From Lysobacter silvisoli (GTDB taxonomy: Bacteria > Pseudomonadota > Gammaproteobacteria > Xanthomonadales > Xanthomonadaceae): DNA of 64,000 bases. Location: positions 1,798,001-1,862,000 of the forward strand of contig NZ_QTSU01000001.1 in assembly GCF_003382365.1 (NCBI RefSeq). The letters run 5' to 3'. Within the stretch, counting starts at the first letter, position 1, and every line of letters starts with the position of its first letter. Positions 2,630-59,811 of this stretch are shown here, piece after piece. The notes beneath the pieces are model-generated. The model did no database searches, had not been told where the DNA came from, and saw nothing but the letters and a program-made list of their open reading frames with translations. A program made the translations under genes and the position numbers.

Positions 2630-2640
2630 GCCGCCTGCAT

Positions 2641-2668
2641 GTAGGAGCGGCGCAAGCCGCGACCGCGA
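2641..2668. repeat. GTAG-type REP hairpin
   Basis: GTAGGAGCGG CGCAAGCCGC: a GTAG head followed by a GCGGC/GCCGC stem-loop, 11 nt after the pyrH stop. It is the same small palindromic repeat seen at 16693, 16840, 42871, 43069, 56733 and 56803. It matches the general form of GTAG-headed REPs known from Stenotrophomonas and relatives. Confidence 0.75.
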
Positions 2669-2715
2669 ATCCGCACCTACGCCGCAGCCCTCGCCCGCCT
2701 GCTTCCGCCTTTGCT

Positions 2716-2761: not shown

Positions 2762-3148
2762 CTTCAAGCAACAGCAACAGCTTCCGCATGCTACGCACGC
2801 GGGTCACTTTCTCTTGCTCGCCCAAGAGAAAGTGACCAAAGAGAAGGGCAGACTTAGTTCGACGCCGTGCGGCGCGAGAACGGAGCTTGCGCGGTGATTT
2901 TCCGATCGGGCCTCCTGCCCGAGCGAAAAACGGCGCACATCCTGTGCGCCGCCCCCCGCCTTCGCGGGGGCAGGCTCTTCGGGTCTTCCGATTGGGACCG
3001 CGAGGGCCGCAACGGCGTTGTAGGTCAAGAGCATTCGCTGCGCTCATCCCCTCACCCTAACCCTCTCCCGCAAGCGGGAGAGGGGATGCATACGGCGTTG
3101 CTGGTTTTAGCCCCTCTCCCGCTTGCGGGAGAGGGGTTGGGGTGAGGG
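2762..3148 (-). repeat. Composite hairpin repeat, copy 1 (inverted)
   Basis: Read on the minus strand this contains, in order: two palindromes CCCTCTCCCGC/GCGGGAGAGGG (3111-3136 and 3061-3084); a hairpin with a GGA loop and T-tract (2932-2950, then five T); a second AGGAG-loop hairpin (2906-2922); a 15-bp-arm hairpin (2802-2816 with 2823-2837); and a CGGAAGCTGTTGCTGTTGCT tail (2766-2788). The same modules in the same order occur at 16278 and 27220. It fills most of the pyrH to CDF gap. Open reading frames inside it simply follow the repeats and are not taken as genes. Confidence 0.85.
2926..2950 (-). terminator. Rho-independent terminator-like hairpin in composite repeat copy 1
   Basis: On the minus strand: arm GGCGCACA, loop GGA, arm TGTGCGCC, then GTTTTT. 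It faces away from pyrH, so it would stop transcription coming from the right and does not act as the pyrH terminator on the plus strand. Confidence 0.55.
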
Positions 3149-3226
3149 CACGCGGGGCAGCAATCTCGCGCCGCCACCAGCCCCTTGTAATAGTGTCCCC
3201 CACCCTCCCCATGCCAGCATCGCGGC

Positions 3227-16231: not shown

Positions 16232-16277
16232 TCTGCGCGGAACGCAATCGACGACGCAAGACCGCAGCTCCGCGTGC

Positions 16278-16870
16278 CCTCACCCCAACCCCTCTCCCGC
16301 AAGCGGGAGAGGGGCTAAAGCAGCAAGCCGCGTCGAATGCATCCCCTCTCCCGCTTGCGGGAGAGGGTTAGGGTGAGGGGATGAGCGCAGCGAATGCTCT
16401 TGATCTTCGCTCGGGCACCGAACTCGCCATGCCAATAGAAGACCCGTAGAGCCTGCCCCCGCGAAGGTGGGGGGCGGCGCACAGGAGGTGCGCCGTTTTT
16501 CGCTGGCACAGGATGTGCCATCGAAAAATCCCCGCGCCAACTCCGCTCTCGCACGGGAGCTCTGGTGTAGCGTTTTTCTTTGGTTACTTTCTTTTGACGC
16601 TTATCAAAAGAAAGTAACCCGGCCGCTTGCGGACGGAAGCTGTTGCTGTTGCTTCAACCAACACACCCAAACACCTTCGCGCGTTCGGAGCTGGTCGCGG
16701 CTCACGCCGCTCCTACCCCAAGGCGCCAGAGCAGACCCCACGCTGATCTAGGGCTTGGTCGTAGCTGCGGATTCGCGGCCGCAGCGTGCGCAGCTTCTAC
16801 AGGGGGTGCTCGTGGGATTCGTCGTGATTTTGGATTCTCGGTCGCGGCTTACGCCGCTCCTACCCCAAGG
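16278..16870 (+). repeat. Composite hairpin repeat, copy 2, with REP tail
   Basis: The core at 16278-16660 repeats the modules of copy 1 in the opposite orientation: palindrome pair (16278-16380), GGA-loop hairpin with T-tract (16475-16500), second GGA-loop hairpin (16504-16520), a hairpin with two 16-bp arms (16582-16597 with 16604-16619), then the GGAAGCTGTTGCTGTTGCTT tail. GTAG-type REP units follow in inverted form at 16693-16716 and 16840-16863, with a decayed one around 16745-16795. Copy 3 at 27220-27786 is similar over the whole length. No gene is supported in 16232-17052. Confidence 0.85.
16475..16500 (+). terminator. Terminator-like hairpin in composite repeat copy 2
   Basis: Arm CGGCGCAC, loop AGGAG, arm GTGCGCCG, then TTTTT. 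It is oriented to end transcripts arriving from rnhB, 244 nt past its stop. Confidence 0.6.
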
Positions 16871-17052
16871 CAAAGCGCGGCGCGACCGCCCATCGGCTGA
16901 ACGGGCGCCGCGTGCCCTACGTCACAGCGACTTTCCGCCCGCGCGTCCAGGCTGAGCAACCAAGCATGCTGCCACGGCATCCAAAGGACTGGGTCGAGGC
17001 GCCACCGGCCGGTGCCCGACACCTGCCCCCTGGCCGGAGACGGAGGTGCTCC

Positions 17053-27164: not shown

Positions 27165-27219
27165 TTCGCGGTTGAAGCTTGGGCTCACGAGCATGCGCCG
27201 CGACCAGTTACTTCGCGCG

Positions 27220-27786
27220 CCCTCACCCCAACCCCTCTCCCGCAAGCGGGAGAGGGCTAACAACAGCAAGCAGCTTCGGATGGATCCCCTCTCCCGTTTA
27301 CGGGAGAGGGCTAGGTGAGGGGATGAGCGCGCAGCGCGAAGGCTCTTGATCCTCGCTCGGGCACCGAACTCGCCGCGCCAACAGCAGACCCGGAGGGCGG
27401 CGCACAGGATGTGCGCCGTTTTTCGCTCGGGCAGGGATGCCCGATCGGAAAATCCCCGCGCATGCATCGATCTCGCAGGGGAGCTCTGGGGAAGCGTTTT
27501 TCTTTGGTTACTTTCTTTTGACGCTTATCAAAAGAAAGTGACCCGGCCGTTTACGGACGGAAGCTGTTGTTGTTGCTTCAACCAACCCACCCACACACTT
27601 TCGCGAGTTCGGAGCGGATCGCGGCTCACGCTCCTACAGAAGGCGCAGACCCGACAGAGATCGAAGCTTTCGTCGTAGTTGCGGGTTCGCGGTCGCAGCT
27701 TGCGCAGCTCCTACGGGGGGCTCGTAGGATTCGTCGTGATTGTGGAGGCGCGGTCGCGGCTCACGCCGCTGCCACCCCAAGGCGTG
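27220..27786 (+). repeat. Composite hairpin repeat, copy 3, with REP tail
   Basis: Direct repeat of 16278-16870. The palindrome pair is at 27220-27320 (the second with CCCGT/ACGGG instead of CCCGC/GCGGG). The GGA-loop hairpin and T-tract are at 27398-27423, the second GGGA-loop hairpin at 27427-27444, and a hairpin with two 16-nt arms at 27506-27521 with 27528-27543. The tail ends near 27582, then come decayed GTAG-type REP units around 27618, 27680-27716 and 27752-27775. No gene is supported between 27165 and 27848. Confidence 0.85.
27398..27423 (+). terminator. Terminator-like hairpin in composite repeat copy 3
   Basis: Arm CGGCGCACA, loop GGA, arm TGTGCGCCG, then TTTTT. Oriented to end xseB-ispA transcripts, about 230 nt downstream of ispA. 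Confidence 0.6.
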
Positions 27787-42846: not shown

Positions 42847-42870
42847 GCCGTCTGCGTTTGAGGCTTTGGG

Positions 42871-43092
42871 GTAGGAGCGGCGTAAGCCGCGACCGGCAAA
42901 CAGCCGCAGCGATGCGCTTGCCCGGCGCGTCGCCTACCCCGAAGCGATGCCGTCGATCTCTGTGGGAGCGGCGTAAACCGCGATTTCGTGGCCGCGTGGG
43001 GCTGGGTTAGCGCGACTTACGTCGCTCCTGCAGCTGCAACGATGGGTTTGTCGTTGGTGAAGGTTCGCGGTCGCGGCTTACGCCGCTCCTAC
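42871..43092. repeat. Cluster of GTAG-type REP hairpins
   Basis: Forward units GTAGGAGCGGCGTAAGCCGC at 42871 and a variant at 42963, then inverted units at about 43009-43030 (decayed) and 43069-43092 (GCGGCTTACGCCGCTCCTAC). They fill the 320-nt gap between the PhoX-like gene and rsfS; no gene is seen there. Confidence 0.8.
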
Positions 43093-43120
43093 CCCTAGGC
43101 AAGGAGCGGGGGGCGGAACG

Positions 43121-56712: not shown

Positions 56713-56732
56713 GCCGCCGCTCCGGCCTTGGG

Positions 56733-56826
56733 GTAGGAGCGGCGTAATCCGCGACCGCGAACCAACGACCTGCGCGTCGACAACGAAGTCTGGCCGTCCA
56801 TCGGTCGCGGCTTGCGCCGCTCCTAC
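56733..56826. repeat. Head-to-head pair of GTAG-type REP hairpins
   Basis: GTAGGAGCGGCGTAATCCGC at 56733 and the inverted GGTCGCGGCTTGCGCCGCTC at 56803, separated by about 45 nt, between the kinase gene and the DUF502 gene. Confidence 0.8.
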
Positions 56827-56883
56827 CCCAAAGTCCGATCGTCAAGCCGCACCGCCGCCCGCGCTCGCCTACAATCTGGCGCC

Positions 56884-59553: not shown

Positions 59554-59588
59554 GTGAGAGTCGCGGCGCGAGGTTGGCGCTGCGCGTG

Positions 59589-59689
59589 CCCTCACCCCAA
59601 CCCCTCTCCCGCAAGCGGGAGAGGGGCTAAGACCAGCGGCGTCGGATGGGTTCCCTCTCCCGTTCACGGGAGAGGGCTAGGGTGAGGGG
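59589..59689. repeat. Solo first module of the composite repeat
   Basis: Palindromes CCCTCTCCCGC/GCGGGAGAGGG (about 59602) and CCCTCTCCCGT/ACGGGAGAGGG (about 59653) between CCCTCACCCC and GGGTGAGGG. The hairpins that follow in the full element are missing; only GATGAGCGCGCAGCGCGAATG at 59690 continues the homology. Confidence 0.8.
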
Positions 59690-59811
59690 ATGAGCGCGCA
59701 GCGCGAATGCCCTTAGATTTGCAGCACACGCCCATTCACCCGTGACTTCCGACCGGGGCGGGCGGCAAGCCCCTCGGCCATGCTGGCGGCTTCATCCTCC
59801 GGGGAACCCCC

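What the first reader, a model, noticed from the sequence alone, without database searches (positions are those of the whole stretch)
27398..27444. Tandem GGA-loop hairpins in every copy resemble CsrA/RsmA-binding RNA
All six hairpins (2932-2950, 2906-2922 on minus; 16475-16495, 16504-16520; 27398-27418, 27427-27444) place GGA in or at the edge of the loop: GCACAGGATGTGC, GGGCAGGAGGCCC, GCACAGGAGGTGC, GGCACAGGATGTGCC, GGGCAGGGATGCCC. Stem bases differ but pairing and the GGA are kept. CARGGAUG-type hairpin loops are the established CsrA/RsmA target, and pairs spaced like this bind one dimer. If transcribed from the upstream operon, the 3' UTRs could titrate RsmA.
Basis: partly seen in the sequence, partly recalled or inferred. 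Interest (0 to 1): 0.72.

Follow-up and report, generated by a model that had tools for sequence, protein, structure and literature searches.

The report
Repeated twin hairpins resembling CsrA-binding RNA
A small twin-hairpin element, repeated about a hundred times between genes of this Lysobacter-like bacterium and found in many relatives, keeps the loop letters that the global regulator CsrA/RsmA recognises while its stems change, so it may be a missing partner of that regulator in this bacterial family.

Summary
The six hairpins are the only perfect A(N)GGAN-loop hairpins (stem 6 bp or more, loop 5-6 nt) in the window; order-2 Markov sequence gives 0.7 hairpins and 0.0 pairs. They belong to a 69-nt element with 109 places in this genome by a loop-agnostic anchor. 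A covariance model finds it in 88 of 159 family genomes (40 of 54 genera) and 40 of 369 class genomes. Stems covary. With loops masked, GGA is kept in 101 of 107 (H1) and 106 of 107 (H2) hits. At one orthologous locus in nine species 65 of 68 positions are invariant; the three exceptions are free loop positions. That is the published RsmE/CsrA signature, and the host has a canonical CsrA. The nearest known family, Rfam TwoAYGGAY, was already predicted to bind CsrA, but window copies miss its threshold. Binding and transcription are untested. Orientation does not favour the sense strand of neighbouring genes, so the 3'-UTR sponge step is unproven.

The parts
27388..27457 (+). element E, copy 3 (H0-H1-H2)
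   Evidence: R1 92.8 bits, E 2.8e-22 at 27389-27457; loop-blind R2 65.8 bits, E 6.2e-15 at 27398-27454
27389..27397 (+). H0 mini-hairpin CCC-GGA-GGG (loop GNA in most other copies)
   Evidence: sequence; variable loop base
27398..27418 (+). H1, 8-bp stem, loop AGGAT
27419..27452 (+). H2, inner 6-bp stem 27427-27444 with loop AGGGAT, extended by UUUUUCG/CGGAAAA (extension from comparison)
27506..27543 (+). Y hairpin GGTTACTTTCTTTTGA...TCAAAAGAAAGT(G/A)ACC; bases after 27540 placed from the copy consensus
   Evidence: Y start found within 110 nt of 70 of 74 anchored own copies
27209..27574 (+). approximate core of the larger repeat unit that carries E (about -210 to +155 around the start of H2; about half of copy pairs align to about +300)
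   Evidence: pairwise coverage of 103 own copies, consensus
16464..16533 (+). element E, copy 2 (H1 16475-16495 loop AGGAG; H2 inner 16504-16520 loop AGGAT)
   Evidence: R1 80.2 bits, E 5.5e-19
16582..16619 (+). Y hairpin of copy 2
2891..2962 (-). element E, copy 1 (H1 2931-2951 loop AGGAT; H2 inner 2906-2922 loop AGGAG)
   Evidence: R1 78 bits, E 2e-18
2802..2837 (-). Y hairpin of copy 1

Best explanation
E is a structured RNA element whose two A(N)GGAN hairpins are binding sites for one dimer of the host CsrA/RsmA. In this genome it is carried in about a hundred intergenic copies of a composite repeat that also holds a second conserved hairpin (Y). When a copy is transcribed on the GGA strand, the RNA would bind CsrA. 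In numbers this could titrate CsrA; singly it would mark or stabilise the transcript that carries it. Shown: covarying structure, loop conservation with loops masked, constraint in place at two orthologous loci, presence of a canonical CsrA. Inferred: transcription, binding and the effect of binding.
For: Twenty-seven sequences from seven genera: 99.1% of cells paired, 10 of 21 pairs with changes on both sides, covariation score 0.463 against 0.128 shuffled (0 of 500), falling to 0.122 or less when slid. Loop-agnostic anchor over genome contigs: 86 distinct matches in the 80 listed loci (of 111 stretches); four are chance matches in other organisms without GGA; of the other 82, 81 have A(N)GGAN in H2 and 77 in H1. 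Loop-blind model: 101 of 107 (H1) and 106 of 107 (H2) (20 of the 99 loci searched had been fetched with the loop-aware model). H1 loops of 105 relatives: A 103, G 101, G 103, A 102, while N (T, A, G, C or absent) and X vary; 104 own copies: X is G43, C31, T26, A4. Nine orthologous Pseudoxanthomonas loci: 65 of 68 invariant, pairwise identity 0.980 against 0.816 and 0.837 at the fastest codon phase of the flanking genes; the three variable columns are free loop positions (chance about 2e-4). Published rule: ANGGAX hexaloop on a stem is high affinity, N and X variable (PMC4005645, passages). Host CsrA is canonical and has Arg44. TwoAYGGAY, which the same model reaches, was independently predicted to bind CsrA (PMC4333381, passages).
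Against: No transcript or binding data. In tandem gene pairs the GGA strand is antisense more often than sense (56 v 34, p 0.026), although copies are not independent. Young copies in this genome show no strand bias in stem changes (12 G-U v 9 C-A), so copy-by-copy selection as RNA is not shown here. H1 in nearly all own copies is a pentaloop without N, the class reported as weaker. Single-sequence folding closes the loop A with U where X is U, and in copies 1 and 3 pairs the U-tract with the H1 side. A shared outer frame in other Gammaproteobacteria also carries a cargo without GGA hairpins. CsrA is also present in three genomes with no match to the model. In RsmU, an RsmA-binding RNA of Xanthomonas, changing all four predicted GGAs did not abolish binding (PMC7694677, passages).
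Confidence: 0.55

Rival explanations
1. The hairpins belong to a mobile intergenic repeat and are kept for its own propagation, recognised as folded single-stranded DNA or RNA by a mobilising enzyme. The loop letters then mark that enzyme, not CsrA.
For: About a hundred copies in one genome inside a repeat unit of roughly 370 bp or more. Divergent inverted pairs about 280-350 bp apart in several genera. No strand bias in own-copy stem changes. Both orientations next to genes.
Against: Orthologous copies stay in place across nine Pseudoxanthomonas and at least seven of eight Xanthomonas species with 65 of 68 and 66 of 70 invariant positions, although gene conversion is not excluded. A frame with the same outer ends lacks the GGA hairpins in 13 of 28 distinct interiors, so GGA is not needed for the frame to occur in several copies. 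No match of copy 3 in plasmids or phages.
Confidence: 0.23
2. E is an intrinsic terminator or 3'-end stabiliser: H1 is the GC-rich hairpin followed by a U-tract. The GGA loop is incidental or structural.
For: H1 is followed by GTTTT[T/C]CG in the 27 aligned family sequences. Copies sit beside gene 3' ends: 69 of 101 placed own copies lie between convergent genes and 1 in a divergent gap; 64 of 126 and 3 of 126 in relatives.
Against: The U-tract pairs with a conserved A-tract in H2, one of whose pairs covaries. Outside the family only 2 of 25 loci (L180, L190) have four or more T directly after H1, while all 25 keep GGA in both loops (these loci were fetched with the loop-aware model). A terminator needs no fixed A(N)GGA loop. 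In six of nine Pseudoxanthomonas loci another terminator-like hairpin precedes E.
Confidence: 0.15
3. The functional strand is the opposite one: UCC-containing loops pair with Shine-Dalgarno sequences as an antisense sRNA.
For: Antisense excess in tandem gene pairs (56 v 34).
Against: Only GGA and one A are fixed; no C-run as in known anti-SD loops (recalled). Conservation matches the CsrA rule base by base.
Confidence: 0.04

Closest known systems
TwoAYGGAY RNA (Rfam RF01731, clan CL00106)
   Same: Two adjacent hairpins with A-N-GGA-N loops on C-G pairs, a shorter first and a longer second stem, an enclosing helix in relatives. R1 and RF01731 both find places in L177 and L181, where RF01731 scores 51.5-58.2 bits (gathering 43). 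Predicted CsrA binder.
   Different: Window copies do not reach the gathering score, and a local scan of copy 3 gave no RF01731 row. Own loops lack N or have G there. The family has a U-tract/A-tract helix in H2, and here the element is a high-copy repeat with a downstream Y hairpin.
CsrB/RsmX/Y/Z/W sponge RNAs
   Same: GGA in hairpin loops; weak sub-threshold scores (RsmZ 20 v 44 bits on L122; RsmW 17.9 v 52 on the window).
   Different: Two sites per copy rather than many in one RNA; dispersed; whether it has its own promoter was not tested.
RsmU (sRX061) of Xanthomonas campestris
   Same: 3'-end-derived RNA with GGA motifs, bound by RsmA (PMC7694677, passages).
   Different: Not E: R1 gives 16.1 bits at best downstream of comEA in three Xanthomonas genomes against 78-92.8 for window copies. 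Single locus after comEA.
REP/BIME and MITE-type intergenic repeats
   Same: High copy number, intergenic, inverted pairs.
   Different: Stems replaced by compensatory change while loops stay fixed. GTAGGAGCGG-type repeats are separate neighbours in the window (the REP label is recalled).

Membership tests
CsrA/RsmA-binding hairpin | A(N)GGAX loop placed directly on a stem, A-G-G-A fixed, N and X free | tested here: met
   rule in PMC4005645 (passages)
CsrA/RsmA-binding hairpin | two sites close enough for one dimer | tested here: met
   25 nt between GGAs in 77 of 102 and 24-26 nt in 99 of 102 loop-blind hits; the workable distance range is recalled
CsrA/RsmA-binding hairpin | host has CsrA with its RNA-binding residue | tested here: met
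   PF02599 in 8 of 8 genomes asked; Arg44 present in the host protein, match to RsmE and RsmA/CsrA structures, role of Arg44 in PMC3791407 (passages)
CsrA/RsmA-binding hairpin | physical binding | not testable with these tools
   no binding data
TwoAYGGAY RNA RF01731 | score at or above the gathering threshold | tested here: not met
   no window match; best locus of the window's family 38.9 v 43 bits; met only in L177 and L181 of other families
TwoAYGGAY RNA RF01731 | two adjacent ANGGAN hairpins inside an enclosing helix | tested here: inconclusive
   two hairpins met; the enclosing helix is read in relatives but is not clear in the window copies
CsrB/RsmZ-type sponge sRNA | Rfam family score | tested here: not met
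   RsmZ 20 v 44, RsmW 17.9 v 52
CsrB/RsmZ-type sponge sRNA | free-standing transcript with its own promoter | not tested
   no transcript data; no promoter analysis of E was made
RsmU | same sequence and structure at the comEA 3' UTR | tested here: not met
intrinsic terminator | GC hairpin followed by an unpaired U-run, kept across relatives | tested here: not met
   U-run pairs in H2 in the comparative structure; outside the family present directly after H1 in 2 of 25 loci; read-through not tested
mobile intergenic repeat | many near-identical dispersed copies | tested here: met
mobile intergenic repeat | a mobilising enzyme | not tested
   no transposase search made

The most novel reading that the evidence does not exclude
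Xanthomonadaceae, in which RsmB/X/Y/Z homologues were not found in Xanthomonas, hold CsrA/RsmA in check with a dispersed sponge: up to about a hundred repeat-borne twin hairpins at gene ends, spread as a mobile repeat and kept because their transcripts bind CsrA.
Probability: 0.22. Interest if true: 0.87.

Novelty: new variant of a known kind. Interest (0 to 1): 0.62.

Why it matters
RsmA controls virulence and secretion in Xanthomonas, but rsmB homologues have not been found there and the regulation of RsmA was called an as-yet-undiscovered mechanism (PMC3937308, passages). A family-wide element with the exact recognition loops is a directly testable candidate. It also links the little-studied Rfam family TwoAYGGAY to a multi-copy repeat, and shows a repeat class whose loops, more than its stems, are what is kept.

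Tried and rejected
Chance hairpins: rejected. RsmU as the same RNA: rejected. Terminator as the conserved function: disfavoured, not excluded. Sense 3' UTR of the upstream gene as a rule: not supported. G-U against C-A asymmetry as a test of RNA-level selection: no bias in own copies (12 v 9). In relatives the simple parser mis-registered H2 (stems with an asymmetric internal loop), so those H2 counts and the relatives' G-U/C-A counts are not used. Plasmid and phage homologues of copy 3: none. A first CsrA translation used the wrong strand and found nothing; corrected. Paper searches for an earlier description of the element or of Y: I saw listings only, at most 20 papers each (20 of 63; 52: 20 of 59; 91: 20 of 137; one found none), and recognised no such description; only open-licence papers are held. 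Limits: matches per genome were scored up to 32 and 13, so they are lower bounds; 26 of the genomes or more may hold unlisted copies. In one search the 150 best of 203 matches were aligned; 109 were distinct and full length, and I dropped two wrong-strand hits (L165 +, L152 -). In one search I set aside four matches in unrelated organisms. Gene calls are from my own codon-usage caller; 2 own and 19 other copies at locus ends were left out of the context counts. One notebook entry gives 78 of 82 for H1; the recount is 77.

Full report
Observation. The three elements were read directly. A systematic scan finds exactly the six reported A(N)GGAN hairpins in 64 kb on both strands, as exactly three tandem pairs; 40 order-2 Markov controls average 0.7 hairpins and 0.0 pairs. 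Folding z-scores of the three window copies are -3.7 to -4.7. For copies 1 and 3 the minimum-energy fold pairs the U-tract with the H1 side rather than with the A-tract of H2, and where X is U the loop A pairs with it; the H2 extension and the open A(N)GGAN loop therefore rest on comparison, not on single-sequence folding.

Extent. The window lies in a 4.54-Mb genome. These names are inferences from contig lengths. Loop-agnostic patterns give 79 and 109 places in the genome, reversed controls 0; 130 places match H1 with up to two mismatches, reversed control 13. Aligning 103 copies shows that E sits in a larger repeat, conserved from about -210 to +155, with about half of the copy pairs aligning to about +300. 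Its other parts include a CCCTCTCCCGC/GCGGGAGAGGG inverted repeat upstream and, downstream, a hairpin Y (GGTTACTTTCTTTTGA/TCAAAAGAAAGTAACC) that starts within 110 nt of 70 of 74 anchored copies.

Structure and loops. In 27 sequences from seven genera, H1 (8 bp) and H2 (7+6 bp) are 99.1% paired and 10 of 21 pairs show changes on both sides; in these 27 both loops are closed by C-G. To limit circularity I used three loop-agnostic tests. (b): 86 distinct matches in the 80 listed loci; four lie in unrelated organisms and have neither the element nor GGA; of the other 82, A(N)GGAN is in H2 of 81 and in H1 of 77 (exceptions L230, L244, L256 and two in L267). (c) A covariance model with loops masked as N was run on 99 loci, 20 of them fetched earlier with the loop-aware model. 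It gives 109 distinct full-length hits among the 150 best; two are on the wrong strand, and of the other 107 GGA is in H1 of 101 and in H2 of 106. The distance between the two GGAs is 25 nt in 77 of 102 and 24-26 nt in 99 of 102.

In-place selection. Nine Pseudoxanthomonas loci are orthologous by their flanks; of eight Xanthomonas loci six align with L128 on both flanks and L130 only around the element. In Pseudoxanthomonas E is 65/68 invariant (pairwise identity 0.980), against 0.724 for the 100 nt upstream and 0.816 and 0.837 at the fastest codon phase of the flanking genes. The three variable columns are the free base of the H0 loop, N of the H1 loop and X of the H2 loop. In Xanthomonas 66/70 are invariant; the variable columns are the H0 loop base, the two sides of one H1 pair (not always a standard pair) and the base opposite C in H2; GGA does not vary. 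There the flanking codon phases showed no clear pattern (0.76-0.86). Gene conversion between copies is not excluded. Young copies within the window's genome show no strand-specific bias (12 G-U v 9 C-A), so selection on each of the hundred copies is not shown.

Breadth. The loop-aware model finds 88 of 159 family genomes and 40 of 54 genera, and 40 of 369 genomes of the class, two of them of the window's family and some with only short, weak matches. In 25 class loci outside the family both hairpins contain GGA in all 25, and A(N)GGAN in H1 of 24 (exception L190); a few H1 loops are closed by G-C (L169, L174, L176) or are longer (L186, L187, L191). A run of four or more T directly after H1 is seen in 2 of the 25 (L180, L190). 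Many of these loci have an outer frame (GAGCAUCGCAG ... GAAGCGCAGGG), an enclosing helix, H0 and often Y. Searching only for that frame (15 of 369 genomes) shows two cargoes among 28 distinct interiors: 15 with twin GGA hairpins, GGA in both, and 13 with a different interior without them (sorted by eye from the printed sequences). Y was recognised by a narrow pattern after 9 of the 15 and 5 of the 13.

Known relatives. Rfam gives no gathering-level match in the window. RF01731 TwoAYGGAY is sub-threshold (gathering 43) at L108 38.9, L158 36.5, L138 33.4, L183 39.0, a second place in L181 39.0 and L325 33.9 bits, and above threshold at L181 (58.2) and at two places in L177 (53.1, 51.5), places that R1 also finds. 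TwoAYGGAY was listed as a probable RNA, probably not cis-regulatory (PMC2864571, passage), and later predicted to bind CsrA (PMC4333381, passages). E is best seen as a diverged, amplified relative; it is not filed as a member because window copies fail the threshold.

Mechanism. The CsrA family recognises A(N)GGAX on a stem, with N and X looped out and variable, and loops without N bind more weakly (PMC4005645, passages; PMC3791407, passages). E shows that pattern of constraint. The host CsrA is canonical, and csrA was found in 8 of 8 genomes asked, three of which had no R1 match. rsmB homologues were not identified in Xanthomonas (PMC3937308, passages), nor those of RsmX, Y, Z and others (PMC7694677, passages); RsmU is a different RNA.

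Context. None of 103 own copies overlaps a called gene. Of 101 placed, 69 lie between convergent genes, 10 are sense and 21 antisense in tandem pairs, 1 is divergent. Of 126 placed copies in relatives the numbers are 64, 24, 35 and 3, against 41 divergent gaps among 257 gaps of 150 bases or more in the same loci. Copies thus lie beside gene 3' ends, but the GGA strand is not preferentially sense (34 v 56 in tandem pairs, p 0.026; copies are not independent). This weakens the claim of routine 3'-UTR expression and leaves open own promoters, read-through or DNA-level roles.

Verdict. A real, conserved, CsrA-like twin-hairpin element of a known but uncharacterised kind, in a high-copy setting that I did not find described. 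Binding is likely but untested; the dispersed-sponge role is a bold, open hypothesis.

Noticed in passing
L314-L318, L327-L331, L337, L339, L341: The outer frame GAGCATCGCAG...GAAGCGCAGGG carries a second cargo without GGA hairpins (CUGUUUGAGC...GCGAGUUU-like) in other Gammaproteobacteria, followed by Y in 5 of 13 by a narrow pattern. Five of these loci were among the eight scanned and gave no Rfam match at E 0.1.
   Followed up: partly
L144, L148, L177; G013: Elements in divergent inverted pairs with E pointing outward and Y on the outside, exact inverted repeats of 46, 46 and 34 bp; eight such pairs 279-284 bp apart in G013. Convergent pairs also occur (G029).
   Followed up: partly
27506-27543, 16582-16619, 2802-2837: Y hairpin, very similar across genera and conserved in place at orthologous loci; function unknown.
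   Followed up: partly
window 16252-16372, 27195-27331, 59564-59697, 3040-3177: Paired CCCTCTCCCGC/GCGGGAGAGGG inverted repeats; three of the four lie upstream of E, while at 59564-59697 the E model found no copy.
   Followed up: no
window 2632-2693, 16740-16872, 27654-27784, 42862-43101, 56724-56835: GTAGGAGCGGCG..-type palindromic repeats, some beside E units.
   Followed up: no
24 of the 86 matches, e.g. L204, L209, L213, L261, L264: H2 stems of the type ACCGAGCC/GGCGAGT with an asymmetric internal loop that looks like tandem G-A; a tandem G-A is also noted for TwoAYGGAY in the literature.
   Followed up: no
L114, L117, L118, L119, L121, L122, upstream of E: Terminator-like hairpin AACGGCCGC..GCGGCCGTTTGCTTTT between the upstream gene and E in six of nine Pseudoxanthomonas loci.
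   Followed up: no
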